Positions 1-21,346 of a DNA stretch of 52,319 nt are shown piece after piece. Below the pieces are notes generated by a model that was not told the origin of the DNA, searched no databases, and saw only the letters and a program-made list of their open reading frames with translations. Position 1 is the first letter of the stretch. Each line of letters starts with the position of its first letter. Made by a program: the position numbers and the translations under genes. Origin of the DNA: an uncultured Ruminococcus sp. (GTDB lineage Bacteria > Bacillota > Clostridia > Oscillospirales > Ruminococcaceae); the NCBI GenBank assembly GCA_902762785.1, contig CACWPL010000019.1, positions 1 to 52,319 on the forward strand, read 5' to 3'.

Positions 1-90
1 TCTTGGTTGGATTTTGTGTGGTAACTTTATTCTACCAGATTTTCGTCTATCTCTCATTTCTTTTTTGTGAACTGTCCAACTTCTATTGTA
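1..90. mobile_element. Possible remnant of an IS end
   Basis: AT-rich stretch, unlike the rest of the window, with no credible gene. The segment TGAACTGTCCAACTT (68-82) resembles the terminal bases of IS3-type elements, and a clearer IS3-type end lies at the opposite end of the window. No transposase reading frame or matching partner repeat is visible here, so this may be ordinary intergenic DNA. Confidence 0.2.
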
Positions 91-127
91 GCACAACAGT
101 TTTCACGTCAGATCTGTCACGATCTGC

Positions 128-156
128 TTGACAAAGGTCCCGGATCATGCTATAAT
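128..156 (+). promoter_or_regulatory. Promoter of the WYL-like gene
   Basis: Perfect consensus: TTGACA at 128-133, 17-bp spacer, TATAAT at 151-156. It is followed by AGGAGG (165-170) and ATG at 178, which fixes the start of the gene even though its frame stays open upstream to position 67. Confidence 0.85.
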
Positions 157-177
157 GGAACGAAAGGAGGGATCGCT

Positions 178-1179
178 ATGCCGCAACTTGACTGTTATGG
201 ATCCAAGCTCGACGTGGACGACCAGACACGTTTCGCACTGACGCCGCCGATGGAGCGTCTGCTTTGCCGTGACCATCTTTGCTTCCACGAGGCGCTCATC
301 CCAGAGCACTCGAATAAGGACATCACCCGGATCATCTCCGGCTATCTGCGCATGTTCAGTGTCAAGGACGCCTACGCTCTGGATGATCAGATCACCAATG
401 CTTTCGATTCCCGCGAAAAGCTCGGGAAGGGCGTCTACCGCCTACGATTCGACAGCGAGCTGACAACGCTGATCAACTCCTTCCCCTTTAGCAGTTACAA
501 GGGCTTCGACAAGCGCGTGCTGGTGGAAACGATCCTCCAGCGCTACTGTGCCCTGCCCTATGCGGAGCGCGAAAAGATCTTCTTCTATGACACCTATCTC
601 ACGATCGCCGGATGCATCCAAGCGGAGACAGAGCTCGATATCTGCGTGCGCACGATCACTGGAGCGCTCCGCCACTTCTCCTACCAGCCCTACATCATCG
701 AGACGGACGAGAGCACAGGGCTCGCCTATCTCGCCGGCTATTCCCGCGAGGTAGAAGGGGCTGGCAGATACCAGATCTTTTGCACGCGGCTCCAGAGGAT
801 CGTCTCGGCGGTCGACACCAAGCGCCACATGCCGCTGAAGCCCGCAAAAAGGGACGCGATCCAGCAGCGCCTCGACGAGCTGGGGATCGCGTACATCAAT
901 ACGGAGATCGAGACGTTCCGTGTGGCATTGACCGAGGATGGGTATCAGCGCTATCTGAAGCTCCTCATCCACCAGAGGCCGCTGCCCGATTCCGTGGAGC
1001 AAGGCGAAGACAGCGACTGGCCCTATGTCCTGACCTTTCATGGGTCACGTTACCAGATGCATAACTACTTTTTCACCTTTGGCCGTCATATCAAGATCCT
1101 CTCCCCCGACCACCTGCGGGAACAGTTCGCGCAGGAGTATCGGGACGCAGCGGCGCTGTATGGGACGGAGGCGCTCTGA
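178..1179 (+). CDS. WYL-domain-like protein beside the CRISPR array
   Basis: 333 aa, soluble, no signal peptide or membrane segment. The C-terminal half follows a degenerate WYL (Sm-fold, ligand-sensing) domain plus the WYL C-terminal extension: a segment AYLAGYSREVEG..RYQIFCTRLQRI near residues 185-205 stands where WYL proteins have W-Y-L..R-x-F-R-L-x-R-I, and the tail FGRHIKILSPDHLREQFAQ is typical of the C-terminal extension. The classical Trp-Tyr-Leu triad is not intact. No clear N-terminal HTH is seen. WYL proteins often regulate or modulate CRISPR-Cas systems, and this gene converges on the array's distal end, so a role in controlling the I-C system is an inference from position. It has its own strong promoter. 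Confidence 0.6.
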   Translation: MPQLDCYGSKLDVDDQTRFALTPPMERLLCRDHLCFHEALIPEHSNKDITRIISGYLRMFSVKDAYALDDQITNAFDSREKLGKGVYRLRFDSELTTLINSFPFSSYKGFDKRVLVETILQRYCALPYAEREKIFFYDTYLTIAGCIQAETELDICVRTITGALRHFSYQPYIIETDESTGLAYLAGYSREVEGAGRYQIFCTRLQRIVSAVDTKRHMPLKPAKRDAIQQRLDELGIAYINTEIETFRVALTEDGYQRYLKLLIHQRPLPDSVEQGEDSDWPYVLTFHGSRYQMHNYFFTFGRHIKILSPDHLREQFAQEYRDAAALYGTEAL

Positions 1180-1223
1180 AGAGCCGTCCGTCGGCATCTT
1201 TCCAGGACCTTTCATCGAAAAGG

Positions 1224-1257
1224 AACAAGGCAGGGAGCGGGTACTCCTTGCCTTGTT
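1224..1257 (+). terminator. Hairpin terminator after the WYL-like gene
   Basis: AACAAGGCA pairs with TGCCTTGTT, with an extra GGA/TCC inner stem, ending in a short TTT. It lies 45 bp after the stop codon. Confidence 0.6.
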
Positions 1258-1352
1258 TGCGTGTATGGGGCGATCTGACCGACAGAGCCGCCATCAGTCT
1301 CCACAGATCTCACAGTTGACAGTTTCTTGATACATTTCGTCGCTCTGCCATC

Positions 1353-1475
1353 TCGACAAAATGCGGCAAATGTGGTATACTGTACTTGGGTCCGAGAGAT
1401 CTCGGATACTATTATTTTAATGCTCTACACGCTTGCCCCGCCCGCTGCTATCCCGGACGGGGATCGGCGTTTTTT
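1353..1475 (+). ncRNA. Candidate short RNA at the distal end of the CRISPR array
   Basis: A good promoter (TCGACA 1353-1358, 17-bp spacer, TATACT 1376-1381) is followed by a small hairpin (CCGAG 1392-1396 with CTCGG 1401-1405), and then by a bulged GC-rich stem (1446-1454 with 1460-1469) ending in six T (1470-1475). This would give an RNA of about 88 nt that stops 25 bp before the oldest repeat; readthrough would be antisense to the array. There is no convincing ORF inside. Expression and function are unknown. Confidence 0.3.
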
Positions 1476-1499
1476 CGGGGCGTTATGCCGCGATCATAG

Positions 1500-2591
<1,092 letters not shown>

Positions 2592-2759
2592 GGCAAGCCT
2601 GTACAGATCTACGATACACCCATTGTACGCTCTGCACAGATCCTGCACACATCGTTCCATCATTCAGCTGGTGCGTGGCGATGGAACGTCAGATCCCCGT
2701 CGAAAATGCGGTGCGAATGACACGGGGGATCCATGATCACATGCCATCCGCACTTGTGT
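2592..2759 (-). promoter_or_regulatory. CRISPR leader
   Basis: Gap between the cas2 stop and the newest repeat. Reading on the minus strand, a TACAAT -10 box (plus coordinates 2622-2627) lies about 30 bp before the first repeat; the -35 is weak. Two inverted repeats occupy the middle: CGTTCCATC/GATGGAACG (2653-2661 and 2680-2688), and GATCCCCGT paired with ACGGGGGATC (2692-2700 and 2722-2731, one bulge). Neither is followed by a minus-strand T-run, so they are more likely leader/integration structures than a cas2 terminator. Confidence 0.7.
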
Positions 2760-3050
2760 TCAGAAGATCAGCGGCTCCTCGACGTCGATCGTTTCCTTTG
2801 CGCCGATGTGCTCCACCTTCGGTCCAGATCGGCGGCCTAAGTCATAGATCCGCAGACTGTCCTTTTCACTGTCGATCTCTTTCATGAGCTTTTGCTTGAG
2901 CAGCGCGATCGTAGCTGGCTCCGCCACACACTCGAACACCGAGTTCTGCACGCGCACCCCATAGTCCGTGCAGACCTTCGCCACACGCCGCAGCCGTTTC
3001 TTCCCTGCTGCATCCTCGGTGTTGACATCATAGGTGATCAGTACGAACAT
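2760..3050 (-). CDS. cas2: CRISPR-associated endonuclease Cas2 (type I-C)
   Basis: 96 aa. Small ferredoxin-fold protein that forms the Cas1-Cas2 spacer-integration complex. The N-terminal strand MFVLITYDVN with its conserved Asp, the RLRRVAKVC helix, the segment YGVRVQNSVFEC and the C-terminal IDVEEPLIF are typical of I-C Cas2 proteins. The ATG at 3050 is chosen because GGAAGGG lies at proper distance; an in-frame ATG two codons upstream (3056) is too close to that site. It is the last gene of the cas5c-cas2 operon and follows cas1 by 25 bp. Confidence 0.95.
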   Translation of the reverse strand: MFVLITYDVNTEDAAGKKRLRRVAKVCTDYGVRVQNSVFECVAEPATIALLKQKLMKEIDSEKDSLRIYDLGRRSGPKVEHIGAKETIDVEEPLIF

Positions 3051-3075
3051 CTCCATCCCTTCCCTATCGCATGCA

Positions 3076-4107
3076 TCATTTCCATAAGAACGGCGGATAA
3101 GCATCCAGATCGCCGCGGATGTGCCGTGCCAGCAGCAGTGACTGAACGTAAGGCAGCATCCCCCATTCGAGCTTGTCCTCCAGATATGGATGACGCAGCT
3201 CCTCATATTTCCGCTTTTGCCAGTATTCGATGAAGAGACGCCGTCCTGCCTCATTCAGCAGTACTGCACCATCCTCACGCTGTTCAAAATGCTCCGGCTG
3301 GAGATACCGCTTGTTGATGAGCGTCAGCACGAAACGGTCGCAGTAGACGCTGCGGAACTCCTCCACCAGATCTAGCGCCAACGACTTTCGTCCCGGACGA
3401 TCCGTATGCAGGAAGCCGACATACGGATCCAGTCCGACCGCCTCGAGAGATGCCGCGCACTGGTTCGTCATCATGGAATATGCGAACGACAGCAGGGCGT
3501 TCACCCGATCGAGCGGCGGCCGACGGCTCCGTACCGTGAAGGTGAAGCCGTCCTTCTGCTGTAGGATCATATCGTTGAATACGGAGAAATAGATGCTCGC
3601 CGCCTCGCCCTCGATGCCGCGCAAGCTGTCTGCATCCGCCGCTGCACCGGCATCCACGATCGCTGCTTTCAGATACTGCGAACGCTGCCGGAACATCTCG
3701 GCGTCGATCCGCGGTGCATGGTCTCGGATCATGCGCTCGAGCACCCAGCGACTGTTGTAGAGCTTCGCACAGATCATGCTCCGTGCGATCTCCAGACTGC
3801 GCCGTGCGTCATCGGCGATACGGTACTGCTCACGGCGCAGGAGCACATTGCCGCGCACCTCGCCCTCGACCCGCGCCAAAAAATGCCCGCTGCGGCTCAT
3901 GAATACCAGCGAGATGCCATCGCGCGCACATTTTCCCATGAGCGCCGGACTCGTCCCTGCGTGCCCAAATGTCACGATCTGCTCCAGGTTATGCAGCGGC
4001 ACACGGCCGATCTCCTTTTGCTCACAGGAGATCACGACGTTCTCCCCATCGAGCGAGAGATAACGGTCCGGCTGGTTGACATAGAGCGTGTTTCGCAGAC
4101 GTTTCAT
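3076..4107 (-). CDS. cas1: CRISPR-associated integrase Cas1 (type I-C)
   Basis: 343 aa, normal length. Integrase that inserts new spacers at the leader end, acting with Cas2 and, in I-C systems, Cas4. The metal-binding catalytic residues are visible: Glu166 in RGIEGEAA, His234 in VGFLHTDRPGR, and the acidic pair in ALDLVEEFR (Asp246/Glu249). The ATG at 4107 overlaps the cas4 stop as ATGA, so translation is coupled and the longer open frame to 4200 is not used. Confidence 0.97.
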   Translation of the reverse strand: MKRLRNTLYVNQPDRYLSLDGENVVISCEQKEIGRVPLHNLEQIVTFGHAGTSPALMGKCARDGISLVFMSRSGHFLARVEGEVRGNVLLRREQYRIADDARRSLEIARSMICAKLYNSRWVLERMIRDHAPRIDAEMFRQRSQYLKAAIVDAGAAADADSLRGIEGEAASIYFSVFNDMILQQKDGFTFTVRSRRPPLDRVNALLSFAYSMMTNQCAASLEAVGLDPYVGFLHTDRPGRKSLALDLVEEFRSVYCDRFVLTLINKRYLQPEHFEQREDGAVLLNEAGRRLFIEYWQKRKYEELRHPYLEDKLEWGMLPYVQSLLLARHIRGDLDAYPPFLWK

Positions 4108-4772
4108 GTCCCATCCTCCCCGTACAGCATATCCTTCAGCCAGGCAGACGCCGGCTTTTTCTTCTCGAGTTGCGGCAGGCAGATCTCCCGCAGCGAGCAT
4201 GCATTGCAGGCCCTGCGCCGCTTCACGATCGGTGTATGGCGTCTTTCATACAGCGCATGCATCTCCCGGATGACTGCCTCTGTCCGTTCACGCAGAGGTG
4301 TATCGAACGTGACCTTCATCCGATGCCGCGTCTCTCCATAGTAGAGGTATCCCTCCGGGATGCCGCAGCAGAGCATATCCTCCAGACAGAGCGCCTGTGC
4401 CGTGAGCTGCAGCACATCGCAGTCGTCCTCCTTGGGACTGCCGCGTTTGTATTCGACCGGCACGACGCGAAACGTCCCCTCCATCCCGAAGACCGGGATC
4501 CCGCGCGGGTCGCGGTGGAACTCGACCGCATCACATTCCCCGACGATCCCGAGCCGCGGGGAGGAAACGGCCATCGCCCTTGTGATGACCTTGTCGCCGC
4601 GCGTCTCGCGGATCGTGTCGTCATGCACACGCGCGTGCATGATCTGACCGTCCATCGTGCGGACGTTCTCCTCCCACTGCTGCTCGAGATGGATCAGCGC
4701 CCACTGCCGCCGGCAAAATGCAAAATGCTGGATGCCCGACAGCAGCAGGTACTGATCCTCCGACCATGTCAT
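4104..4772 (-). CDS. cas4: CRISPR-associated exonuclease Cas4 (type I-C)
   Basis: 222 aa. RecB-family nuclease with an Fe-S cluster that trims prespacers and selects those with a PAM. Cys20 in HFAFCRRQW and the C-terminal CNACSLREICLP (Cys189, 192, 198) form the cluster site. RecB motifs are GECDAVEF, VEYKRG and QLTAQALCLE. ATGA overlaps join it to cas7 upstream and cas1 downstream, and no motif is missing. Confidence 0.95.
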   Translation of the reverse strand: MTWSEDQYLLLSGIQHFAFCRRQWALIHLEQQWEENVRTMDGQIMHARVHDDTIRETRGDKVITRAMAVSSPRLGIVGECDAVEFHRDPRGIPVFGMEGTFRVVPVEYKRGSPKEDDCDVLQLTAQALCLEDMLCCGIPEGYLYYGETRHRMKVTFDTPLRERTEAVIREMHALYERRHTPIVKRRRACNACSLREICLPQLEKKKPASAWLKDMLYGEDGT

Positions 4773-5629
4773 ACGAGGTCGATGATCTCCGGCTCGAGGC
4801 CGGCGAGCGGGTCGACCGTGATGTCATAGTCCTCGAAGGAACGCGGGAGGCGTGCGCTGTCCTTCGGGGCGATGTGCAGCGAACGATGGACCTTCGCGGA
4901 GGGATACTGCGGAGTCTTGCTGTCATGCTCCCACCAGTAGACACGGCAGACCTCCATGCTCCCCTCGGGACGGGCCGAGGAGCAGTCGTTCTCAAAGAGC
5001 GTGCAGAGCGCCTGCTTGATCTTGGCGGCATCCTCATCGGAGAAGCCGGTCTTCTCGGCAAGCTGGCAGTTGATGCTGCCATGGATGACGTACATGCCGA
5101 ACGCGATGCGGTGCTTGGTGCCCATCGTGTCCGAAGCCTTGCCCTCCTTGCCGCTCTCACTGTTGACGCTCTTCGTGATCTGCATGCTGATGACCTCGAC
5201 CGGCGACACGCTCACGGCCTGCTGGATGCTCACCGGCCCGCGCACACCGACCGATACCTGGTCGCCCTTGAACGCGAACACCTGTCCGAAGCTGCGCACG
5301 TCGATCCACTCCTCGCAGGCGGTCTTGGCATAGACGTCGCGGTCAGTGTTCTTGCCCTTGGTGATGGCCTTGAGCGCGGCGTTGCCCTCGGCGCGTGCGC
5401 GGAGGCTGTCGAAGCCGTCATCGCAGCGGTCATCAGACTGGACAAAGATGCGCTCGCCCATGTCCTGCAAACGGTTGCGGAGCTTGCGCTTGATGCACAC
5501 GTCCGAGATCTCGCCGAGGCCCTCGAAGTTCTCGCGCGGGCGGTTGCCGTTCAGCGGGTCGCCGTTGGGGTTGGCGTTGGTGGCGGTGATGATGACCGAA
5601 AAGTCGATCTTATGCTGCAAAGTTCCCAT
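4769..5629 (-). CDS. cas7: Cascade backbone protein Cas7 (Csd2, type I-C)
   Basis: 286 aa. RAMP protein that polymerises along the crRNA as the Cascade backbone. The N-terminal IDFSVIITATNANPNGDP segment with the RNA-binding loop is the family signature, followed by the ISDVCIKRKLRNR helix. The central GPVSIQQAVSVSPVEVISMQITK and SDTMGTKHRIAFGMYVIHG segments are typical of Csd2. The ATG at 5629 lies 1 bp after the cas8c stop. It is the most highly needed subunit and sits in the middle of the coupled operon. Confidence 0.95.
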   Translation of the reverse strand: MGTLQHKIDFSVIITATNANPNGDPLNGNRPRENFEGLGEISDVCIKRKLRNRLQDMGERIFVQSDDRCDDGFDSLRARAEGNAALKAITKGKNTDRDVYAKTACEEWIDVRSFGQVFAFKGDQVSVGVRGPVSIQQAVSVSPVEVISMQITKSVNSESGKEGKASDTMGTKHRIAFGMYVIHGSINCQLAEKTGFSDEDAAKIKQALCTLFENDCSSARPEGSMEVCRVYWWEHDSKTPQYPSAKVHRSLHIAPKDSARLPRSFEDYDITVDPLAGLEPEIIDLV

Positions 5630-5630
5630 G

Positions 5631-5999
5631 TCAGTTCTCCTCCTTCTTATGGCTGTCGTACATGTAGGCGGTAAAATGGTGGTAGCCGAGCAGATACATC
5701 GTATCCAGGCGGCTGTTGTCGGCAAAGGCGCCCGGCGTGAATTTCTCCATGACAGACTGGATCAGCTTCTCGACCTGTACACGGTACCCGCTGCGGTCGA
5801 GATACGGCCGCAGACGCTCCTCGATGGTCTGCCAGGTCTGGTACGGCCGCTGCGCGAAGTTCGCCCAATAGCGGCGCGCATTGGTCACACGCTTGGCCTT
5901 GTCGGCTTCGTCATAGGTGTCGCTCTCAGCCTTGTCGGCGATGGCGAGCAGGCAGCCATAGAGATAGCTGCGGTCGGTCTCATTCGGGTCAAAGCCCAT
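5631..5999 (-). CDS. cas11c: Internal start giving small subunit Cas11c
   Basis: In-frame ATG at 5999 inside cas8c (protein starts MGFDPNETDR, 122 aa). It is preceded by a strong internal AAGGAGA site (plus coordinates 6007-6013) with 8 nt from AGGAG to ATG. Type I-C systems are known to make the Cascade small subunit Cas11 by internal initiation within cas8c, giving a helical protein of about this size that coats the non-target strand. The ribosome site is seen; the product itself is inferred. Confidence 0.8.
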   Translation of the reverse strand: MGFDPNETDRSYLYGCLLAIADKAESDTYDEADKAKRVTNARRYWANFAQRPYQTWQTIEERLRPYLDRSGYRVQVEKLIQSVMEKFTPGAFADNSRLDTMYLLGYHHFTAYMYDSHKKEEN

Positions 6000-7436
6000 A
6001 GGGATCTCTCCTTTCTTCGATACGCGGTACATCCCGCAAACGGTCTCGAGCACGATCCGATGGCAATACCCATGCTCGTAGCTGAGCGGATGGGATGCCT
6101 TCTGGTGCAGGACGCAGATCAGATCGACCGGCACCGGCCTGCCGTCTGTCACGCATGGCAGCAAGCGAAGGATCTGGTCACGGACGAGCTTGTCGTCGCA
6201 CTCCAGCCGTCCGTTCTTCTCCGATCCATACGCCGCGCGGATGATGTCGAAGAGACTGAACGACTTGATGCAGTTCACCTTCCGCTTGCCGTCATATCGC
6301 CTCCATGCAGAATCGGCATGCCAGCGCTCCACGTTCTTCAGGAAGTCCGATGCCAGCAACTCATCATACAATGCGACAGAGAGCCGTCCTGTCGTGGCGG
6401 CATCGAGGCCGAGGATCATGACCTTCGATCCCTGCGGGAGCTTCGTGCCATACCCCAGGATATGCTGACGGAGCCTATCCCTGTAGAGCGGCAGCGAGCT
6501 GTAATGCTCCTCCTCGTCCCACTCGTCATCCGGCTCGTCATCGACCGGATCCGGGACAGGCGCGAGCGCGGTCGCCCATGTGACCAGAGACAGCGAGCCG
6601 TAGCTCTGCCCCTGCCTCTGGATGAGCCATTTGAGGGCATTGTGTACCTTCTGCGAAAAGTCATAGCTGACCGAGATCGCCTCCTCCTTGTCCGCGAATC
6701 GGCCGCGATAGGTGAAGCCGCTCTCGTCGTTCGAGGAGATGAGCTTGGCCTTGTCACCGGCATTGCGGATCTTGGATGGATGCTTATACGTCACGGGCGA
6801 CACCGTGCCGGTGGCATAGCAGAGCTTCTCGTTGCCCATCAGACGGGCATTGAAGCGCTGGAAGCTGTCGTAGAGCGTGGTATCGCACCATGTCCGTGTC
6901 TCGTGTCCCAGCGCATCATACAGCACGATGAATCGCACGAACGCATCCGTCTGCGCGATGCCATTGATCTTGGCACCTTCCTTGAGACGGCCATCCTCCT
7001 CCGTTTGCAGCACCCCGCTCTTGACAAGATCCTCCATCAGGCATCCCTTTTGGAGATACGCCAGGACCGCACGAACGGCCGGATGGCTCAGATCATTGTT
7101 CGCCCAAGCGGAGAGCTGCTCCAGATAGGCACTGTTCGCCTCTGCGGCGCGCTTGTTCTCCACATACCTGCCATAGTCCCCCGCCAGATACATCAGCTTG
7201 TCCGCGAGCGGCATGGCACTGACGCCGCTCGTCCGCGAACCGGAATCCTCCGTGACAGGGATGATGGTCACGGCGTCCTCCTTGGCGATGGTATGAGCAT
7301 CCTTGAACATGCCGTGCTCGTCGATCGTCAGCTCGATCTGTGCGTTGGCAGTGGAATGTGCGCCGGGGAGCAGGCCGCTCTTCGGGTCCTTTGCCGCGGC
7401 CTCGTACACGGCATACAGCTCAGTCGTCCATCCCAT
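5631..7436 (-). CDS. cas8c: Cascade large subunit Cas8c (Csd1)
   Basis: 601 aa, usual length. PAM-recognising large subunit of I-C Cascade. Start Met (MGWTTELYAVYE) at 7436 is preceded by GGAGG with an 8-nt gap; an in-frame ATG at 7454 has no such site. Csd1 hallmarks include SYGSLSLVTWATA, KVMILGLDAATTGRLSVALYDEL, and the C-terminal GRGYxxG-like segment replaced by FDPNETDRSYLYGCLLAIADKAE. It overlaps the cas5c end by 17 bp. The C-terminal fifth is also translated separately (see the Cas11c entry). Confidence 0.95.
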   Translation of the reverse strand: MGWTTELYAVYEAAAKDPKSGLLPGAHSTANAQIELTIDEHGMFKDAHTIAKEDAVTIIPVTEDSGSRTSGVSAMPLADKLMYLAGDYGRYVENKRAAEANSAYLEQLSAWANNDLSHPAVRAVLAYLQKGCLMEDLVKSGVLQTEEDGRLKEGAKINGIAQTDAFVRFIVLYDALGHETRTWCDTTLYDSFQRFNARLMGNEKLCYATGTVSPVTYKHPSKIRNAGDKAKLISSNDESGFTYRGRFADKEEAISVSYDFSQKVHNALKWLIQRQGQSYGSLSLVTWATALAPVPDPVDDEPDDEWDEEEHYSSLPLYRDRLRQHILGYGTKLPQGSKVMILGLDAATTGRLSVALYDELLASDFLKNVERWHADSAWRRYDGKRKVNCIKSFSLFDIIRAAYGSEKNGRLECDDKLVRDQILRLLPCVTDGRPVPVDLICVLHQKASHPLSYEHGYCHRIVLETVCGMYRVSKKGEIPMGFDPNETDRSYLYGCLLAIADKAESDTYDEADKAKRVTNARRYWANFAQRPYQTWQTIEERLRPYLDRSGYRVQVEKLIQSVMEKFTPGAFADNSRLDTMYLLGYHHFTAYMYDSHKKEEN

Positions 7437-8178
7437 CTGCCTCACCTCCTGCAAACTCCGCCAAGCCGCTGAAGGTCCCCTCTCCGAACGGCTTGATCGG
7501 CATGTCCTTGATATGCCGCATCAGCGTCGGGTCGCAGTCCTCCGGGCGCGGGAAATGGATCACCCCATCCTCCATGACCGGCTGCCAGAGCCGGAGCGTC
7601 AGCTTTCCCTTGTCCTCCTCACGGATCGCCTCATCGGCATAGGTGAAGCCATGCTCCATCAGACTATAGGGGACGATGCCGCCATTGTCATACGCGCCCT
7701 CGCCCTCGCCGAACACGCAGGGCTCGACATAGGCCTGACATTCGCGAGTCCCGAGGAAGATGTCGCGCCTGCCGCCGCGCGCGATCATGCGTTTGGCGAT
7801 GTTGTGATGCTTGTTCTCGTTGCGGTCGTGCGCCAGCTCGGGACGATTCGGGTTCCACTCGAAATGCGCCCGCACCTGATAGCACACGTCCTCCAGATAG
7901 GTATAGTACGCCAGGTCGTTCCCGCCGCCGTACTTGATCGGCCGGATGCCCTTGCGTGCGAACCGGATCGGCCGCATGATCCGCACATCGTCGATGTACC
8001 AGATCAGCGTCGGCTTCCAATAGACGCTGTGCAGGACGCCTTTTAAAGCCTCATATGTCGGTACGGCGTAGCTCGTCTTCTCACCGCCCGCTCGTGTCAG
8101 GATGTCCGAGAACAGCGCATACCTGCCATAGACGGCAAATTCGACGATGTTCGGGTGTCGGGGCTTCGGGATCTCCAT
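7420..8178 (-). CDS. cas5c: Cas5c (Cas5d) crRNA-processing endonuclease
   Basis: 252 aa. In I-C systems Cas5c replaces Cas6: it cuts the repeat at the 3' base of its stem-loop and stays bound to the 11-nt 5' handle. A KHH cluster (Lys123-His124-His125 in ENKHHNIAKR), equivalent to the catalytic Lys-His of characterised Cas5d proteins, and nearby Tyr residues (SYAVPTYEALKG) are present. The ATG at 8178 has AGGAG 9 nt upstream; the ATG at 8187 abuts the ribosome site and is unlikely. It is the first gene after the promoter at 8259-8287 and should process both the array and the pseudo-crRNA at 8363. Confidence 0.95.
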   Translation of the reverse strand: MEIPKPRHPNIVEFAVYGRYALFSDILTRAGGEKTSYAVPTYEALKGVLHSVYWKPTLIWYIDDVRIMRPIRFARKGIRPIKYGGGNDLAYYTYLEDVCYQVRAHFEWNPNRPELAHDRNENKHHNIAKRMIARGGRRDIFLGTRECQAYVEPCVFGEGEGAYDNGGIVPYSLMEHGFTYADEAIREEDKGKLTLRLWQPVMEDGVIHFPRPEDCDPTLMRHIKDMPIKPFGEGTFSGLAEFAGGEADGMDD

Positions 8179-8205
8179 TCGCCTCATCTCCTTTTTTGTT
8201 TATTT

Positions 8206-8222
8206 GGATGCATGCTGCATCC
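8206..8222 (-). promoter_or_regulatory. Hairpin in the cas5c 5' untranslated region
   Basis: GGATGC and GCATCC arms (6 bp) with a 5-nt loop lie in the ~74-nt leader of the cas5c transcript, 28 bp upstream of the start codon. Role unknown. Confidence 0.4.
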
Positions 8223-8248
8223 GATCATATCAGCATTAGTTTTTCTTC

Positions 8249-8285
8249 TTCTACTATCATTATATTATATTATTTACTGAAAGTC
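8249..8285 (+). promoter_or_regulatory. Protospacer-like target of the pseudo-crRNA, with TTC PAM
   Basis: TTC (8249-8251), the usual type I-C PAM, is followed by TACTATCATTATATTATATT. Aligned with the spacer part of the RNA at 8392, positions 1-24 agree except at 6, 10, 18, 21 and 23; 6 and 18 are positions where type I crRNA bases are flipped out of the duplex. Beyond position 24 pairing is lost. A 34-bp R-loop would cover 8252-8285, that is the start point, -10 box, spacer and part of the -35 box of the cas5c promoter. Confidence 0.75.
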
Positions 8286-8287
8286 AA
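8259..8287 (-). promoter_or_regulatory. Promoter of the cas5c-cas8c-cas7-cas4-cas1-cas2 operon
   Basis: Minus-strand TTGACT (8287-8282), 17-bp spacer, TATAAT (8264-8259). Predicted start point is near 8252, about 74 nt before the cas5c ATG. It separates the Cascade/adaptation genes from cas3 and coincides with the pseudo-crRNA target. Confidence 0.8.
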
Positions 8288-8347
8288 TAGGGTATCAAAA
8301 AATTCACAGAAAATACACATTTTGTTTCATTTCAAGATCGTGTTTCA

Positions 8348-8356
8348 TGCTATACT
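8348..8356 (+). promoter_or_regulatory. Extended -10 promoter of the pseudo-crRNA
   Basis: TGC-TATACT (8348-8356) is an extended -10 element. The same ATGC-TATAAT form recurs at other promoters in this window (151, 10850, 27578, 29018, 30402, 44253). No good -35 box is seen. The predicted start point, G8363, is exactly the first base of the degenerate repeat. Confidence 0.6.
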
Positions 8357-8362
8357 AAGACC

Positions 8363-8459
8363 GTCACGGTCTTGACCGTGTGGATGGAAATTACTAACAT
8401 CATATTATGTTCTGTTTCTGCGCTTGCCGCACGGTGTTCCCGCCGTGCGGCTCTTTTTT
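8363..8459 (+). ncRNA. CRISPR-resembling regulatory RNA (CreR/CreA-like pseudo-crRNA)
   Basis: Three parts. (1) A degenerate repeat, 8363-8391: starts GTC like the true repeat, has a perfect 7-bp stem CACGGTC/GACCGTG (read as 6 bp with a CUUG tetraloop), and ends in the handle TGGATGGAAAT, one base different from the array's TGGATTGAAAT. (2) A 34-nt spacer-like segment, 8392-8425, the same length as array spacers. (3) An intrinsic terminator, 8426-8459, in place of a second repeat. Cas5c would be expected to cut after G8380. The spacer partly matches the cas5c promoter site at 8252 next to a TTC PAM, so the RNA should guide Cascade to bind but not trigger Cas3 cleavage. CRISPR-resembling RNAs of this design (CreA in CreTA modules, cas-regulating CreR) are known in other CRISPR types. 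No toxin-like ORF accompanies it, which favours cas autorepression. Confidence 0.75.
8426..8459 (+). terminator. Terminator of the pseudo-crRNA
   Basis: 9-bp perfect stem GCCGCACGG/CCGTGCGGC with an 8-nt loop, followed by TCTTTTTT. The T-run is only on the plus strand, so it terminates the small RNA and not cas3; the cas3 stop codon overlaps it from the other side. Confidence 0.85.
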
Positions 8460-10821
8460 AGAAGATCAGCGTCTCCTGCGGCGCGCCCTCTGTGGTGATG
8501 CCGCAGTCTGCATCATAAAACCTGGGATCGAGCACCATCGCCCCGCACGCCAGCGTGCGCACGGCACCGACTGCATCGAGCTTCCGCACATCGTACACAC
8601 TGACAGAATATCGCTGTGCCTTCCGCAGGAGCTCGCGGTAACGCTCCGGCGTCTGGTCACGCGAGAGCGCGTCGATGAGCGCTTCCGCCTCCTGGCCCCA
8701 CGGCACGATGACCTCCTGCGTGTGACTGTCGATGACCTTGAACAGCGTACCAGCGGTCTTGAACGCCTGCACACTGAAACGGCGATGCTTCGGCAGCTTC
8801 GACATCTCGAAATGATCGCTGTTGCAGGAGAGGAGCTCCACGAGATCGGTCTTGTAGCTCGTATCTGGTTCGATCACCGGATAGGAGAGGATGTCCGCGA
8901 CGCTGCGGTACAGTTCCTGGAAATAGGCATGCTGTGTCTCCTCCGAAAGATAGTCCGTGTACCCCTCATTCCCCATGATCTGCGCTGTGATGCTCTGCGC
9001 ACGCGACATCCCATCCAGATACTGCACCCCCTCCTCCTTGAGCTTGATGAGGTAGACGGGACACGGTGCAGCGCTCTCGCCGTTCCGATTGCAGCGTCCT
9101 GCGGCCTGTGCCGCATTGTCGAGCCCCGCCAGCGACCGCACGACACATCGGAAGGAGATGTCCACGCCCGCCTCGATGAGCTGGGTCGTCACGCAGATCA
9201 GCGGCGTTTGCGCATCCAGGAGGCAGCGCATCTCGCGGATCTTCTCCCGCCGATGGGCCGGGCAGAGATCCGTGCTCAGATGGATCACATGCGCCTGCGG
9301 ACAGCGTGCCTTCATCAAACGGAACAGCTCCCGCGCCGCCGCCTTGGTATTGACGATCAGGAGCAGATCGCCGTTCTCTATGAAACGCTCCTCACAAAAT
9401 GCCGCCGCCTCTTCATAGGTGGACCCGTGCGGCGTGACCGCAGAGATCAGCTCTGTGCGGCGGAGCGCAGCAAAGTCCGCGGTCGTATCGCCGGTCATGC
9501 TGCTCTCGGCGTCGAGCAGGAGCGGGAACGCCGTCTGCTCGACCGCCGGCTGCGTCGCGGTACATAGGACGACGGTCGTGCCGCAGATGTGTGTCAGCAT
9601 ATCGACCGCAAGATCGAACAGATGCACACAGCGCAGCGGGATCGACTGCACCTCGTCGATGATGATGACCGCGTCCGCGAGCCGATGCATCCTCCGAACA
9701 GCGCTCGTCCTAGCCGAAAACAGTGTCTCGAGGAGCTGCACCATCGTCGTGGCGATGACGGGGGCATCCCATTTCTCGGTGCGCAGCTCGTACTCGTGCA
9801 GTGCCTCCTTCGTCTCGATGTCCGCGAGCAGATCCGACCAATGCTCTGTGAAGGCATCGTCACCGGCGATGGCGCGGATCTCATCGCTGTTTTGTTCGAG
9901 GATGGACATGAAGGGCGCCGTGTAGACGATCTTCCGCTTGCCATGCCGCCTGCAATGATCGATTGCGAAGCGCAGCGACGACAGCGTCTTCCCGCCGCCG
10001 GTCGGCACGATCAGACGGCAGGCCTTCACTGGATGCGCCGCGAATGCCGCGCACCGATCGGAGATGCTGCACCGCTGCACGGAGATGGGGTCTGTCCGCT
10101 TGGCGAAGGATGTACACTTCTCCTGCATCCGCTCGGCCATCTGTTCCCAGACAGAAGGCAGATCGAACACCTTCTCCGTCGCTTCGGCGCTCATGAAGGA
10201 TGCCGTGTCCGTCCGATCGGCGTCGATCAGGCAGGACTGCAAAAAGCGCTCGAGCATCCCGAGATAGAAGGCATAGCAATGGCACTGGTGCGCCTTTTCG
10301 ACCCGTTCATCCCTCGCGAGCGCCTTGATCGAGGCGATGATCGTGCGATACTCCTGGTCAGCAAGACCGAGGAGCGCGACCAGCTCGTCGTCTGCCGCGA
10401 TCTCGTGGAGCGCCTCACAGACCTCGTCATAGTGCTCCGTTTTCCCGATCCGATAGGCAAGATAGTCGACGTCCCCATGAGCAAGAAGATCGTGCAGACC
10501 ATGGTGGGAGAGGATGATCCTTGCGATCAGGCGCGAGACATCGCGATACCTGACAGCGTCCTCACGGTCGGCCAGCTCACACAGATACCGCGCCCCGGCA
10601 AAGCTGTGGTCGATCTCGCCGCGGGACGCCTTCGACTCCTGCCGGATGTAGGCCTGGAACGCGCCGGACAGCTTCCCGGCATCATGCAGGAGCCCTGCGA
10701 GCTGCCCGATGTGGCCGGCGCCGATCAGACCGGCATAGCTGCCGCAGAGCGCCGCGGTCGCACGGCAATGCTCCCGCACGGACTGTGTCTTCCCGTCCGT
10801 CTCACGGATATGTGCGATCAT
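8458..10821 (-). CDS. cas3: CRISPR helicase-nuclease Cas3 (type I-C)
   Basis: 787 aa. Recruited by target-bound Cascade to nick, unwind and degrade DNA. The N-terminal HD nuclease shows His46-Asp47 in LLHDAGKL, plus EIDHSFAGARYL. The superfamily 2 helicase shows Walker A PTGGGKT (273-279), the DEVQ box (389-392), and the arginine-finger motif QAAGRCNRNGE near residue 590. The C-terminal domain follows. The ATG at 10821 is chosen because AGGAGG lies 9 nt upstream. Unlike many I-C loci, it is not tightly coupled to cas5c: a 280-bp gap with its own regulatory RNA and promoter follows. Confidence 0.95.
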   Translation of the reverse strand: MIAHIRETDGKTQSVREHCRATAALCGSYAGLIGAGHIGQLAGLLHDAGKLSGAFQAYIRQESKASRGEIDHSFAGARYLCELADREDAVRYRDVSRLIARIILSHHGLHDLLAHGDVDYLAYRIGKTEHYDEVCEALHEIAADDELVALLGLADQEYRTIIASIKALARDERVEKAHQCHCYAFYLGMLERFLQSCLIDADRTDTASFMSAEATEKVFDLPSVWEQMAERMQEKCTSFAKRTDPISVQRCSISDRCAAFAAHPVKACRLIVPTGGGKTLSSLRFAIDHCRRHGKRKIVYTAPFMSILEQNSDEIRAIAGDDAFTEHWSDLLADIETKEALHEYELRTEKWDAPVIATTMVQLLETLFSARTSAVRRMHRLADAVIIIDEVQSIPLRCVHLFDLAVDMLTHICGTTVVLCTATQPAVEQTAFPLLLDAESSMTGDTTADFAALRRTELISAVTPHGSTYEEAAAFCEERFIENGDLLLIVNTKAAARELFRLMKARCPQAHVIHLSTDLCPAHRREKIREMRCLLDAQTPLICVTTQLIEAGVDISFRCVVRSLAGLDNAAQAAGRCNRNGESAAPCPVYLIKLKEEGVQYLDGMSRAQSITAQIMGNEGYTDYLSEETQHAYFQELYRSVADILSYPVIEPDTSYKTDLVELLSCNSDHFEMSKLPKHRRFSVQAFKTAGTLFKVIDSHTQEVIVPWGQEAEALIDALSRDQTPERYRELLRKAQRYSVSVYDVRKLDAVGAVRTLACGAMVLDPRFYDADCGITTEGAPQETLIF

Positions 10822-10849
10822 ATCCGAACACCTCCTTCGCTTTTTGTAC

Positions 10850-10878
10850 ATTATAGCATATGCCCATCAAAATGTCTA
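10850..10878 (-). promoter_or_regulatory. cas3 promoter
   Basis: Minus-strand TAGACA (10878-10873), 17-bp spacer, TATAAT (10855-10850), preceded by TGC. No TTC-flanked match to the pseudo-crRNA spacer is present here. Confidence 0.8.
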
Positions 10879-10960
10879 GTACATTTTTGTGTGATGTCCC
10901 GTCTGCGACACACTGGATACGCTTTTTTCCTGCGAAGGATGACGTACTCCTCCAAAAGAT

Positions 10961-11021
10961 GCAAAAGGCATCATTTTTGAGGCAAAATATCATTTTCAAA
11001 TGCGCTCATTTCGTGTATGAT
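10961..11021 (+). promoter_or_regulatory. Promoter and upstream repeats of the esterase gene
   Basis: TTTTCA (10993-10998), 17-bp spacer, TATGAT (11016-11021). Directly upstream and overlapping the -35 are CAAAATATCATT (10983-10994) and an imperfect copy CAAAAGGCATCATT (10962-10975) starting 21 bp earlier. The same element occurs twice in front of the arabinanase gene at 15877. Confidence 0.5.
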
Positions 11022-11058
11022 AGAGTCAGCAAGATCAGATGATAAAGGAGGTATCCTC

Positions 11059-13584
11059 ATGAAAAAAGCACTTGCCCTGCTCCTGACCGCTGCCCTTGCG
11101 CTCGGTACGGCCGCTGCCCTGCCGGTCGCCGCTGCCGGGACGGTCTACGAGCTCGAGCGCGGCGCTGTCACCGACGTCGGCGAGAACACGACGGCCGCTG
11201 TCACGATGGACGGCGCGAGCGGCGGACGCGTCATCGACCTCAAGGACAGCGGTGATTCCGTCACCGTGACCGTACATGCGGCGTCCGCGGGGACGCACAC
11301 GCTCACCGTCCGCTACTGCCAGCCCTATGACGAGAACGGCAAGTACCAGAACGTCCTTGTGGGTGGCCAAAAGATCGGCCAGATCGTCTGCGCCTACACG
11401 GGCGAGGGCCAGTTCCGCACTGTCAGCCTCTCCGCCGACCTGCGTACCGGGGACAACACCGTCACCATCGAGGGCGACTGGGGTTGGACGTATCTCGACA
11501 GCCTGACCGTGGAGGGAAGCGCGGCCGTGCGCTCGTCGCTCGCGGCAGCCCCGATCATCAGCCGCGGCGTCCCGGCGTATTCCGGCAGCGGCAAGGCCTC
11601 GGATGCCAATGACGATGCCCATTACACGACCTGGAAGTCCGACGCGCCGGACTACCTCGCCTACGACCTCTCCGGGGTCCCGGCATCGCAGCGCGGCAAG
11701 GTCCTTGCGGTCTGGTACAACGGCAGCACCTTCGACCGTGTCGGGCGCTATATCACCGTGGACGGCGAGCCGACCGACTATGTCCTCGAGACGAACGACG
11801 CGCCCGGCGGCACCTATCCGCAGGACGGCTGGCAGGTCCTCGAGACCGTCACCGGCAACACGCTCTCGACCCGCTCCCATCTGCTCGACCTTGGCGGGGC
11901 GAATTGGCTGCGCATGCGCGTGACCGGCGCAGAGGGCGGCATCTCCCTCGACCTCGATCTCCACGACGCCTCGCAGGGCGCGGACGACAGCTGGATCTTC
12001 TATGGTGACTCCATCACCGCCGGCGGCATGGGGAACATGTGGGGCACGAGCTTCGCCGCCCATGTCCAGGCCCTCGACCCCGCCCGCACGCCCCTCCAGC
12101 AGAACGGCGGCATCGGCGGCATCTCCAGCACGGAGGGACGCGCGCACATCGACGCATGGCTCGCCGCGACCGCCGCGCACTTCGTCAGCATCGCCTACGG
12201 GACCAACGATTCCTGGGGCAACATGAACAGCACCAATCTCTACTACGAGAACACGCGCTACATGATCGACGCGGTCCTCGCTGCCGGGAAGGTGCCGGTC
12301 CTGCCGAGAATCCCGTATGCGTCGAATCCCGATGTGGGCAGCTATGTCGGGGCGCATAATGCGATGATCGACCGTCTCTATGAGGAATACGGCGACAGGA
12401 TCGTCCATGGGCCGGACTTCGAGGCCTATTTCAAGGCACATCCCGACGGTCTGAGCGACGATGGGGTCCATCCGAATGCGGACGGCTATGAGGCCATGCG
12501 TGCGCTCTGGGCGGAGACGATGCAGGCGAACGTCTACGCACATGCGGACTCGTACCAGATCGGCGATGTGGATGCGGACGGCGCTGTCTCCGTCGCGGAC
12601 GTCGTCATGCTGCAAAGGTATCTCCTCGGCGTCGGGACGATGACAGCGCCCCGTGCGGCCGATGTGTATGAGGACGGCGTCACGGACGTCTTCGACCTCG
12701 CTGCCCTCAAGCGGATGCTCGTCACGCCGACCGTACCGACGACCCCGGAGACTCCGACCGTCCCCACGACCAGCCCGGAGGTGTATATGGATCAGATCAA
12801 GGACCAGATCGTCGACCGGCTCCCTGCGGGGGCGGCAGATGTGCGCAGCGGTGTCGACTATGGTGAGCTGCGGTCATGTACCTATTGGTCGACGACCCGC
12901 GAGCGGGAGACGCCCGTGCGCGTCCTGCTCCCGGCGGGGTATGACGAGAACGAGACCTATCCCGTGCTCTATCTCCTGCACGGCTATTGGAACGATGAGA
13001 AGACCCTCTCCGACCCGGAGTCCGGCCTCCAGACCATCATCGGCAATCTGATCGCCAGCGGCGAGGCGGAGAAGATGATCGTGGTCTTCCCCTACATCTA
13101 CACGAGCAAGACCATGCCCTACTGCACCGGGATGGACTGGGAAAATAACCAGAACTACGACAATTTCATCTACGACCTCAAGGCCGATCTGATGCCCTGG
13201 ATGGCCTCGCATTTCTCCATCCGCACCGACCGCGCCTCGACCGCGATCAGCGGCTTTTCGATGGGCGCACGCGAGTCGTTCTACATCGGCACGCAGATGT
13301 CCGATCGGTTCGGGTATGTGGGGAGCGTCTGCACGGCGCCGGGCCTCGCGCCGGGGATGCTCGACCCGGGTGATCTGCGGTTCGCGCAGCAGCCATACAT
13401 GATGCTGCTGAGCGGCGCGGTGTATGACGGGGTCGTCGGCGAAAACCCGAAGAACTATCATGAGATGCTGACCGCCAACGGCGTCCCGCACATCTGGAAC
13501 TCCCTCCCTGACGGCGGCCACGACAACAACAGCATCCAGCCGCATGTCTACAACATGGTCAAGTTCGCGTTCAAGGCGAAGTGA
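11059..13584 (+). CDS. Secreted multimodular esterase: CBM - SGNH esterase - dockerin - CE1 esterase
   Basis: 841 aa. Order: signal peptide (about 1-26, cut after ALPVAAA); a CBM35/CBM6-like beta-sandwich (about 28-155); a CE2-like beta domain; an SGNH hydrolase with the Ser block FYGDSITAG (about 313-321) and the DGVHPNADG His block; a type I dockerin with two Ca-binding repeats (GDVDADGAVSVADVV and a weaker VYEDGVTDVFDLAALK, about 500-554); a Thr/Pro linker; and a C-terminal CE1/esterase-D domain with YLLHGYW and the nucleophile motif SGFSMGAR (about 730). It probably removes acetyl and feruloyl groups from hemicellulose or pectin while docked on a cellulosome. Start chosen from AAAGGAGGT and the signal peptide. 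Exact substrates are inferred. Confidence 0.85.
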   Translation: MKKALALLLTAALALGTAAALPVAAAGTVYELERGAVTDVGENTTAAVTMDGASGGRVIDLKDSGDSVTVTVHAASAGTHTLTVRYCQPYDENGKYQNVLVGGQKIGQIVCAYTGEGQFRTVSLSADLRTGDNTVTIEGDWGWTYLDSLTVEGSAAVRSSLAAAPIISRGVPAYSGSGKASDANDDAHYTTWKSDAPDYLAYDLSGVPASQRGKVLAVWYNGSTFDRVGRYITVDGEPTDYVLETNDAPGGTYPQDGWQVLETVTGNTLSTRSHLLDLGGANWLRMRVTGAEGGISLDLDLHDASQGADDSWIFYGDSITAGGMGNMWGTSFAAHVQALDPARTPLQQNGGIGGISSTEGRAHIDAWLAATAAHFVSIAYGTNDSWGNMNSTNLYYENTRYMIDAVLAAGKVPVLPRIPYASNPDVGSYVGAHNAMIDRLYEEYGDRIVHGPDFEAYFKAHPDGLSDDGVHPNADGYEAMRALWAETMQANVYAHADSYQIGDVDADGAVSVADVVMLQRYLLGVGTMTAPRAADVYEDGVTDVFDLAALKRMLVTPTVPTTPETPTVPTTSPEVYMDQIKDQIVDRLPAGAADVRSGVDYGELRSCTYWSTTRERETPVRVLLPAGYDENETYPVLYLLHGYWNDEKTLSDPESGLQTIIGNLIASGEAEKMIVVFPYIYTSKTMPYCTGMDWENNQNYDNFIYDLKADLMPWMASHFSIRTDRASTAISGFSMGARESFYIGTQMSDRFGYVGSVCTAPGLAPGMLDPGDLRFAQQPYMMLLSGAVYDGVVGENPKNYHEMLTANGVPHIWNSLPDGGHDNNSIQPHVYNMVKFAFKAK

Positions 13585-19856: not shown

Positions 19857-20462
19857 TCAGGACAGCTCGCTGTCCGCCTCGATGCGCGCCTGCATCTCCT
19901 GCGTCCAACCGTCCCGCAGCGAGAAGCCGATCGTGGACAGCGAGGTGAGGAGGTGGCCGTCGTCATCATCGAGGACGCCATAGGTGATGTCGACCCCGTT
20001 CGACTCGAGGCGGATCACCGACTCCCAGACCATGCGGTACTCATTGCATGCGATGATCGCCGGCAGATCCGGTAACGAGTACATGCGCTCCAAACGCTCC
20101 GTGCGCACTGACAAGCACCGGAAGAGCTCGGAGATGTCGTACCACTCCTGCAAGGAGCAGTAGTGGAGCACCTCGCCGGGCACGTCCACATCGGTGAACG
20201 GCTCGTAGACCGCGGCCGGGTCGAAGCCCTCCTCGCGCAGCAGCCGGTCCACAGCGGCCCGGCCGATGGTCACGTCAGACGCCAGCGTCCCGCTCTTGAG
20301 GTCCTTGGACGTGATCAGCGTCCCGTCGTCCGTCAGCGCGATCATCCCGGAGATGAGAAGGCGGATGGTGGGCAGGTCCAGGTCAAGGTGCAGCGCGATG
20401 GCCTCCTCCTGGTCAGGCAGGAGGATCCCCTCAAAAGGCAGATGCAGATGCAGCATGAACAT
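19857..20462 (-). CDS. Unknown protein A of a duplicated pair
   Basis: 201 aa (or 199 if the second ATG, 20456, is used; that one has better spacing from GGAAGG). Soluble, acidic, no signal peptide. About half of its residues agree with the gene at 20663: shared blocks include HLDLDL, GMIALTDDGTL, ASDVTIGRAAV, MYSLPDLPAIIACNEYRM and a C-terminal SLRDGWTQEMQAR. No family is recognised. It has its own promoter and terminator. Confidence 0.7.
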   Translation of the reverse strand: MFMLHLHLPFEGILLPDQEEAIALHLDLDLPTIRLLISGMIALTDDGTLITSKDLKSGTLASDVTIGRAAVDRLLREEGFDPAAVYEPFTDVDVPGEVLHYCSLQEWYDISELFRCLSVRTERLERMYSLPDLPAIIACNEYRMVWESVIRLESNGVDITYGVLDDDDGHLLTSLSTIGFSLRDGWTQEMQARIEADSELS

Positions 20463-21268: not shown

Positions 21269-21317
21269 CCCTTCCTTTCCTCGGTCGCCCCCCCTCTTTT
21301 GGGGGTGGTAATTATTT

Positions 21318-21346
21318 ATTGTAGCATATTTTGATGCGATCGTCAA
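21318..21346 (-). promoter_or_regulatory. Promoter of unknown gene B
   Basis: Minus-strand TTGACG (21346-21341), 17-bp spacer, TACAAT (21323-21318). The leader has a CCCCC/GGGGG hairpin as in gene A; box sequences are weaker than in A. Confidence 0.75.

What the first reader, a model, noticed from the sequence alone, without database searches (positions are those of the whole stretch)
8249..8287. The pseudo-crRNA targets the promoter of the Cascade-adaptation operon with a TTC PAM
The site begins with TTC, the I-C PAM, then matches the pseudo-spacer at 19 of its first 24 positions (17 of the first 20). Mismatches at 6 and 18 fall on bases that are flipped out in type I R-loops, and the PAM-distal ten bases are unpaired. 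The site covers TATAAT and the 17-bp spacer of a TTGACT-17-TATAAT promoter. Incomplete pairing is what allows binding without Cas3 cleavage. This predicts negative feedback that relaxes when Cascade is depleted, titrated by array crRNAs or blocked by anti-CRISPRs.
Basis: partly seen in the sequence, partly recalled or inferred. Interest (0 to 1): 0.95.

Follow-up and report, generated by a model that had tools for sequence, protein, structure and literature searches.

The report
CRISPR guide silencing its own genes
Next to a bacterial type I-C CRISPR system sits a small crRNA-like gene whose guide matches the switch (promoter) of the CRISPR genes themselves, and the same pairing is kept in about forty related loci although the letters differ, so the immune system very probably turns down its own production.

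Summary
In the cas3-cas5 gap of a type I-C locus, a single pseudo-repeat (8359-8391, +) carries a 34-nt pseudo-spacer (8392-8425) ended by an intrinsic terminator (8426-8459). Its first 24 positions match 19/24 a TTC-flanked site (8249-8285) that covers the -10 and reaches the -35 of the TTGACT-17-TATAAT cas5 promoter; 0 of 20,000 shuffles reach this with TTC. Across 40 such loci, positions 1-5, 7-11 and 13-16 match in 549 of 560 cells, while 6, 12 and 18 onward are free: the footprint of a 16-17-position Cascade R-loop. This is CreR-type RNA-guided autorepression, here in subtype I-C with one repeat plus a terminator. The class is known (CreR, CreA); one review names I-B, I-E and V-A. Repression itself is inferred, not measured.

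The parts
8249..8251 (+). TTC PAM of the target
   Evidence: sequence; TTC in 34 and TTT in 6 of the 41 sites with at least 13/15, although no PAM was required
8252..8285 (+). protospacer in the cas5 operon promoter; positions 1-17 are the paired part (15 of 17 match here)
8259..8264 (-). -10 box TATAAT of the operon that begins with cas5c, protospacer positions 8-13
8282..8287 (-). -35 box TTGACT, 17 bp from the -10; overlaps the PAM-distal end of the 34-nt footprint
8351..8356 (+). probable -10 (TATACT) of the crRNA-like RNA; a start near 8363 would put the processing stem at the very 5' end
   Evidence: sequence, inference; not found by the consensus scan
8359..8391 (+). pseudo-repeat; stem CACGGT/ACCGTG (8365-8370/8375-8380) and handle TGGATGGAAAT (8381-8391; array handle TGGATTGAAAT)
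8392..8425 (+). pseudo-spacer (34 nt)
8426..8459 (+). intrinsic terminator (11-bp stem 8426-8451, then T tract) in the place of a second repeat
   Evidence: best second handle has 6 of 11 mismatches
8458..10851 (-). cas3 open reading frame; own promoter-like site TAGACA-17-TATAAT at 10878-10850, so the true start is probably an internal ATG (10821)
   Evidence: the start is my reading of the sequence
7420..8187 (-). cas5c, first gene of the targeted operon
   Evidence: TIGR01876
5631..7454 (-). cas8c (open reading frame)
   Evidence: TIGR01863
4769..5725 (-). cas7 (open reading frame; upstream start)
   Evidence: TIGR02589
4104..4772 (-). cas4
   Evidence: TIGR00372
3076..4200 (-). cas1 (open reading frame)
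   Evidence: TIGR03640
2760..3254 (-). cas2 (open reading frame; upstream start)
   Evidence: TIGR01573
1497..2595 (-). CRISPR array, 17 repeats

Best explanation
The element is a CreR-type gene: a short RNA of one degenerate I-C repeat, a spacer and a terminator. Cas5c cuts at the stem base and leaves an 11-nt handle; the RNA is loaded into the I-C Cascade; Cascade reads TTC and pairs with the cas5 operon promoter over spacer positions 1-5, 7-11 and 13-16/17. This short R-loop covers the -10 and the complex reaches the -35, so it blocks RNA polymerase, but pairing stops before the PAM-distal half, which makes Cas3 recruitment and cleavage unlikely. The result is negative feedback on Cascade (and adaptation) genes that relaxes when free Cascade is scarce. 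Shown here: anatomy, the match, its coevolution in relatives, PAM and the period-6 pairing pattern. Inferred: expression, processing, binding, repression, no cleavage, and the response to crRNA load or anti-CRISPRs.
For: Match with TTC beyond chance (0 of 20,000 shuffles) and the only exact match of the guide pattern in the genome. In 149 distinct type I-C upstream regions, 54 isolated handles; best nearby match at least 13/15 in 41 of 54, against about 1.0 per 54 with spacers swapped between loci and 5 of 54 with spacers read backwards; with no PAM asked for, 34 of the 41 are TTC and 6 TTT. The match sits in register with the handle: at least 14/15 in 36 at offset 0 (all TTC/TTT), 7 at -1, 7 at +1, 2 at +2, 0 at the other eleven offsets tried. 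Mismatch fraction by position in 40 loci: 6 0.82, 12 0.53, 18 0.85, 19-34 0.65-0.85; 1-5, 7-11 and 13-16 0.00-0.07; 17 0.25. Own target is best or tied for 40 of 40 spacers, strictly best for 36; foreign targets reach 14/15 in 7 of 1560. Same pairing rule as shown by mutation for I-B CreA: 1-5 and 7-11 needed, 6 and 12 not, TTC PAM (PMC8501985 section 15). In 10 of 12 element-free loci printed, cas3 and cas5 abut; in 17 of 40 elements the element lies upstream of cas3 instead. A predicted -10 or -35 lies inside the footprint in 29 of 39 loci with a scorable promoter. The window RNA from 8363 folds into the Cas5c-type stem and the terminator.
Against: No expression, binding or reporter data. 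This copy is among the weaker ones: the handle has one change (7 of 40 elements have one) and position 10 is mismatched. If the transcript began ten bases upstream of 8363, the minimum-energy fold would be another hairpin that breaks the processing stem. Only 40 of 149 regions hold the element by my rule, so it is not needed for I-C function (not all regions reach beyond cas3). 13 of the 54 isolated handles have no match of 13/15 or more, and 9 of 31 loci with a cas3-cas5 gap of 150 bp or more lack the element. About 1 of the 41 is expected by chance; L139, L221 and L225, whose sites or elements lie far from the first gene or from each other, are the weakest. Controls are not free of the same signal: of 10 swapped hits of 13/15 or more in 540 trials 6 had TTC, and of 5 reversed hits 3 had TTC, perhaps because the promoter sites resemble each other or are nearly palindromic. 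In 10 of 39 loci no predicted promoter hexamer is inside the footprint; in 7 of these the site lies at or just downstream of the expected start. The match threshold raises the overall match level; the period-6 pattern, the PAM and the register were not selected for, though one search set positions 6 and 12 aside beforehand.
Confidence: 0.9

Rival explanations
1. CreTA-like addiction module: the guide represses a small toxin (CreT) between its target promoter and cas5, not the cas genes as such.
For: CreA of H. hispanica has the same build, one pseudo-repeat plus a terminator, the same seed and a TTC PAM (PMC8501985 passages and section 15). The window leaves about 75 nt between promoter and cas5c, with mini reading frames visible by eye.
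Against: In L046 the target begins 9 nt from the start of the Cas5c match (spacer 151 nt away, offset -142), so there is no room for a toxin RNA between promoter and cas5. The genes downstream of the site were not checked one by one in loci with wide gaps (L079, L225, L227) or far upstream of cas3 (L139, L221).
Confidence: 0.04
2. Antisense RNA: the RNA pairs with the cas5 mRNA leader and not, through Cascade, with promoter DNA.
For: The RNA is complementary to the strand that would be mRNA if cas3 transcription read through.
Against: The paired 17 nt lie mainly upstream of the expected start (-10 at protospacer positions 8-13); free positions 6 and 12 and a PAM flank belong to a Cascade R-loop, not to RNA-RNA pairing; in 8 of 40 elements the target is on the other strand.
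Confidence: 0.02
3. Chance or promoter-like similarity between AT-rich stretches, without function.
For: Both stretches are AT-rich and contain TATAAT-like letters; reversed spacers reach at least 13/15 in 5 of 54.
Against: 0 of 20,000 shuffles with TTC; swapped-spacer control about 1 of 54 against 41 of 54, register and PAM; paired changes in close relatives.
Confidence: 0.02
4. Decayed copy: a functional autorepressor in relatives, no longer working in this genome.
For: Handle substitution and a mismatch at position 10 in the window.
Against: Remaining pairing 14 of 15, a paired change at position 7 relative to L046 and L007, intact stem, terminator and PAM.
Confidence: 0.08

Closest known systems
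CreR, cas-regulating RNAs (Liu et al. 2023, 'Widespread RNA-based cas regulation...'; paper not held, known from recall and from passages of the reviews PMC13131331, PMC12737573 and PMC12948488)
   Same: crRNA-like RNA beside cas genes, limited complementarity to a cas promoter, PAM-flanked target, generally no toxin, Cascade as the presumed repressor
   Different: One review names I-B, I-E and V-A (PMC13131331), another says type I and V-A in general (PMC12737573). Here subtype I-C, where Cas5c does the processing (family knowledge; also PMC10651486 passage); one pseudo-repeat and a terminator where CreR is called a mini-CRISPR (PMC12948488); in 22 loci the element lies between cas3 and cas5
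CreA of CreTA (haloarchaeal type I-B; PMC8501985, passages and section 15 seen)
   Same: One-repeat form with terminator in H. hispanica; TTC PAM; pairing at 1-5 and 7-11, positions 6 and 12 free
   Different: CreA represses a toxin RNA; here the target is the promoter of the cas operon, and pairing runs on to 16-17
Standalone crRNA-like elements surveyed in CRISPR-Cas loci (Shmakov et al. 2023, NAR; not held, recalled abstract only)
   Same: Repeat-like elements with spacers partly complementary to cas promoters in many type I systems
   Different: I could not check whether I-C loci of these Clostridia are in that survey; this is the main threat to any novelty
Cas9 autorepression by a long-form tracrRNA (recalled; Cas9 auto-repression named in PMC13131331)
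   Same: Effector guided to its own promoter, relieved by anti-CRISPRs
   Different: Type II, unrelated RNA
Racr, phage RNA anti-CRISPRs with solitary repeats, including I-C (PMC10651486, passages)
   Same: Single I-C repeat units transcribed on their own
   Different: Phage-borne decoys; here host cas locus, with a spacer that coevolves with the cas promoter

Membership tests
CreR (RNA-guided cas autorepression) | crRNA-like RNA gene with repeat-derived handle outside the array, in the cas locus | tested here: met
   8359-8391, handle 10 of 11 identical to the array handle; isolated handles in 50 of 149 regions
CreR (RNA-guided cas autorepression) | PAM-flanked, limited complementarity to a cas promoter | tested here: met
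   TTC, 19/24, over TTGACT-17-TATAAT; 40 loci
CreR (RNA-guided cas autorepression) | Pairing conserved by coevolution of RNA and promoter (my own test of the class, not a published criterion I could read) | tested here: met
CreR (RNA-guided cas autorepression) | RNA is transcribed and processed by the system's own nuclease | not testable with these tools
   stem and terminator predicted; no RNA data
CreR (RNA-guided cas autorepression) | Represses cas expression through the effector, relieved by crRNAs or anti-CRISPRs | not testable with these tools
   inference from position over the promoter
CreR (RNA-guided cas autorepression) | Two-repeat mini-CRISPR form (a usual, not a required, feature) | tested here: not met
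   the best second handle in the next 90 nt has at least 3 of 11 mismatches in all 39 elements tested; a terminator-like hairpin is there in 38 of 40. A one-repeat form is known in CreA, so this marks a variant and does not exclude the class
CreTA | Toxin RNA or gene under the targeted promoter | tested here: not met
   tested in one locus by spacing: L046 leaves 9 nt between target and cas5; not tested by expression, and the window's own leader of about 75 nt is not excluded
Racr | Encoded by a virus or other mobile element | tested here: not met
   element in the host cas locus with a coevolving cas target; one pattern of the genus-type element found 0 viral contigs

The most novel reading that the evidence does not exclude
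Type I-C systems of Clostridia carry an old, coevolving CreR in two layouts. Between cas3 and cas5 (22 of 40) it would control Cascade and adaptation; in this window cas3 has its own promoter-like site outside the loop, so the loop would set the Cascade to Cas3 ratio. Upstream of cas3 (17 of 40) it would control the whole operon. Taken together the 40 natural guide-target pairs stop at 16-17 positions, which would be an evolutionary measure of how long an I-C R-loop may be before Cas3 destroys the chromosome.
Probability: 0.4. Interest if true: 0.68.

Novelty: new member of a known kind. Interest (0 to 1): 0.58.

Why it matters
It extends RNA-guided autorepression to subtype I-C with an unusually clean comparative case. 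The set of about 40 coevolving guide-promoter pairs reads out PAM preference (TTC, some TTT), the unread bases (6, 12, 18) and the tolerated R-loop length (16-17) from evolution alone. It warns anyone who expresses or transplants I-C systems that the gap in front of the Cascade genes may hold a repressor, and it suggests a simple way to raise Cascade expression in native hosts: removing the RNA.

Tried and rejected
Rejected: chance similarity, antisense to the mRNA leader, CreTA and phage Racr (see rivals). A first script read whole-genome loci in one orientation only, so several were read on the wrong side; its table is not used and one search corrected it. In one search L049 was wrongly marked a duplicate (it has no upstream DNA); one search dropped it and L069 as too short. 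Rows left out before counting: of 193 upstream sequences, 2 too short and 42 duplicates, leaving 149; handles were required to have at most 1 of 11 mismatches, and those 50-85 nt from another handle were taken as arrays and left out; of 43 elements with at least 13/17, 3 without TTC/TTT were left out of the profile (PAMs AGT, CTA, GGT). L070 has an element-like match that is out of register (PAM CTA) and L089 a short one (TTC; positions 1-5 and 7-13 only); neither is counted. A relaxed rescue found four more weak candidates (L148, L104, L120, L134), not counted. No control was run for the stem and terminator counts or for the footprint-promoter overlap. Upstream DNA did not always reach beyond cas3, so 40 of 149 is a lower bound. 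The sample is not complete: one search kept the best 80 of 395 loci, and I took the strong Cas5c matches only, not the weak ones (other Cas5 types). Rfam gave no match in 1-12000 at gathering scores. One viral pattern scan gave none; it covers only the genus-type spacer. Literature: in nine full-text searches, of which I saw the listings, no title or abstract start shown describes this for I-C; the two main papers are not held, so I make no claim of first report. An earlier count gave the element's coordinates one base off; one search is right.

Full report
Setting. The window holds a complete set of type I-C genes on the - strand: cas3, then cas5c, cas8c, cas7, cas4, cas1, cas2 and an array of 17 repeats. 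cas3 is separated from cas5c by 270 bp. cas3 has its own promoter-like site TAGACA-17-TATAAT. The closest named relatives are gut and rumen MAGs filed as Ruminococcus sp. or Oscillospiraceae.

The element. On the + strand of the gap lie a -10-like TATACT (8351-8356), a pseudo-repeat with stem CACGGT/ACCGTG and handle TGGATGGAAAT (array handle TGGATTGAAAT), a 34-nt pseudo-spacer and an 11-bp terminator stem with a T tract. With a start near 8363, seven bases after the -10, the RNA folds into the processing stem, a spacer hairpin and the terminator (z -4.5). With a start ten bases earlier another hairpin would win. That start site is an inference.

The target. The site TTC + TACTATCATTATATTAT... 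(8249 onward) is matched at 19 of 24 positions. It covers the -10 (protospacer positions 8-13) and the 34-nt footprint reaches the -35 of TTGACT-17-TATAAT. In 20,000 dinucleotide shuffles of the 171-nt region, 3 reach 19/24 with any PAM and 0 with TTC. In the 2.8-Mb assembly the site is the only exact match of the guide pattern.

Relatives. I gathered type I-C loci by Cas5c: the best 80 of 395 loci from named genomes, genus, family and phylum searches (38, 396 and 398 genomes), and up to about 4 kb upstream of further strong hits. Of 193 upstream sequences 2 were too short and 42 duplicates, leaving 149 distinct regions. They hold 54 isolated handles, in 50 regions. For each I took the best match of spacer positions 1-17 (6 and 12 set aside) within 700 nt on either strand with no PAM asked for: 41 of 54 reach 13/15 or more. 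Swapping spacers between loci (ten draws each) gives 1.0 per 54, and reversed spacers 5 of 54. PAMs of the 41: TTC 34, TTT 6, GGT 1. Of fifteen frames tried, frames moved by 3 or more bases, or by -2, give no match of 14/15; the true frame gives 36, all TTC or TTT; -1 and +1 give 7 each and +2 gives 2.

Pairing footprint. To avoid building positions 6 and 12 into the result I repeated the search over all 17 positions: 43 elements reach 13/17, 40 of them with TTC or TTT. Match counts in these 40: positions 1-5 199 of 200, 7-11 195 of 200, 13-16 155 of 160, 17 30 of 40, 6 7 of 40, 12 19 of 40, 18-34 161 of 675, the last about the level of chance. The threshold raises the overall level, but it does not choose which positions are free. 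Every sixth base unread and a stop after 16-17 positions is what a truncated Cascade R-loop predicts. In haloarchaeal CreA the same bases were shown by mutation to be needed (1-5, 7-11) or not needed (6, 12) (PMC8501985, section 15).

Covariation. At positions 1-5 and 7-9 all 142 departures of a spacer from the consensus base are mirrored in the target; at 6, 1 of 19; at 12, 0 of 13; at 10, 12 of 15, the window supplying one of the three exceptions; at 17, 8 of 16. Own target is best or tied for 40 of 40 spacers and strictly best for 36. Of seven pairs of relatives that I compared, paired changes appear in window/L046 and window/L007 (7), window/L007 and L046/L007 (14), L062/L037 (5, 15) and L091/L030 (5, 10); changes in L008/L055 and L062/L063 are unpaired and fall on 6 and 12 only. 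Sequences are related by descent, so these counts are not independent events.

Layouts. Where cas3 could be located (148 regions), the gap to cas5 is 150 bp or more in 31, of which 22 have the element in the gap. In 117 the genes nearly abut or have a smaller gap; 17 of these have an element upstream of cas3. For one element (L007) cas3 was not found on the contig. The element thus tends to go with the first promoter in front of the Cascade genes. The predicted -10 is inside the footprint in 24 of 39 loci; in five loci with the target on the coding strand (L071, L072, L116, L221, L218) the -35 is; in seven (L067, L170, L149, L143, L225, L139, L038) the site lies at or just downstream of the expected start, as a roadblock would; three fit none of these. 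Five elements come from the 29 regions pulled in the phylum-wide sample, from families other than the window's, so this is not confined to one family.

Structure of the RNA genes. Stems next to the handle reach 5 bp or more in 27 of 40 and are only 3 bp in 7; terminator-like hairpins follow in 38 of 40 (no shuffle control). No second handle with fewer than 3 mismatches was seen in the next 90 nt in the 39 elements tested. So the I-C form has one repeat and, as a rule, a terminator. In the CreA work a one-repeat form was thought to derive from loss of the second repeat after a terminator evolved, and one-repeat constructs gave less RNA and weaker repression than two-repeat ones (PMC8501985 passages).

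Mechanism. Best reading: Cas5c-processed guide, Cascade binding, block of the cas5 operon promoter, no cleavage because of the short R-loop, feedback that eases when Cascade is occupied by array crRNAs or blocked. The first part rests on sequence and coevolution. Repression and its relief are inferred from position and from CreR in other subtypes (PMC13131331 and PMC12737573 passages). In this window cas3 seems to lie outside the loop, since it has its own promoter-like site and the guide pattern has no match there within 3 mismatches; cas3 read-through into the operon is possible and untested.

Against. No wet data; the window's copy has one handle change and one unexcused mismatch; many I-C loci do without the element; 13 isolated handles have no target by my rule; the upstream search did not reach beyond cas3 everywhere; a few of the 40 may be chance.

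Novelty. The principle is known (CreR 2023; crRNA-like element survey 2023; both not held and unread here). A 2026 review lists CreR for I-B, I-E and V-A, another speaks of type I and V-A in general. I therefore file this as a new member of a known kind, with subtype I-C, the single repeat with a terminator and the size of the covariation set as what it adds.

Noticed in passing
window 67-1176 (+): A protein with a weak WCX domain (Pfam E 7.5e-06, above its cut-off) sits beyond the trailer end of the array; WYL/WCX proteins are often regulators (recalled), so it may be a second regulator of the locus.
   Followed up: no
window 1497-1717: The repeats at this end of the array are degenerate (CGATCCACGTCCC... 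against CAATCCACGCCCC...), as expected for an old trailer end.
   Followed up: no
L164, L062, L063, L073, L055, L075, L008 against window, L046, L065, L079, L077, L037, L007: The distance from PAM to -10 takes two common values, 18 bases (7 loci) and 13 bases (7 loci) of 39, as if only certain placements of Cascade on the promoter were kept.
   Followed up: no
L071, L072, L096, L116, L122, L139, L218, L219 (target on the other strand); L096, L100, L116, L122, L155, L221 (TTT PAM): Other arrangements of the element. They suggest rearrangement or repeated origin.
   Followed up: partly
window, L164, L046, L062, L063, L065, L067, L073, L077, L037, L075, L170: Terminator hairpins of these twelve elements share GCCGCA(C/T) at the start of the stem; it may be a remnant of the second repeat or a shared terminator.
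   Followed up: no
window 19857-20462 and 20663-21457 (-): Two tandem related genes about 806 bp apart (DNA blocks 74-80% alike) without any Pfam match at 0.001.
   Followed up: no
window 11017-13584, 15877-18354, 21454-25014: Dockerin-bearing carbohydrate-active proteins (GDSL lipase/esterase with CBM35, GH43, CBM6 protein): cellulosome-type genes next to the CRISPR locus.
   Followed up: no
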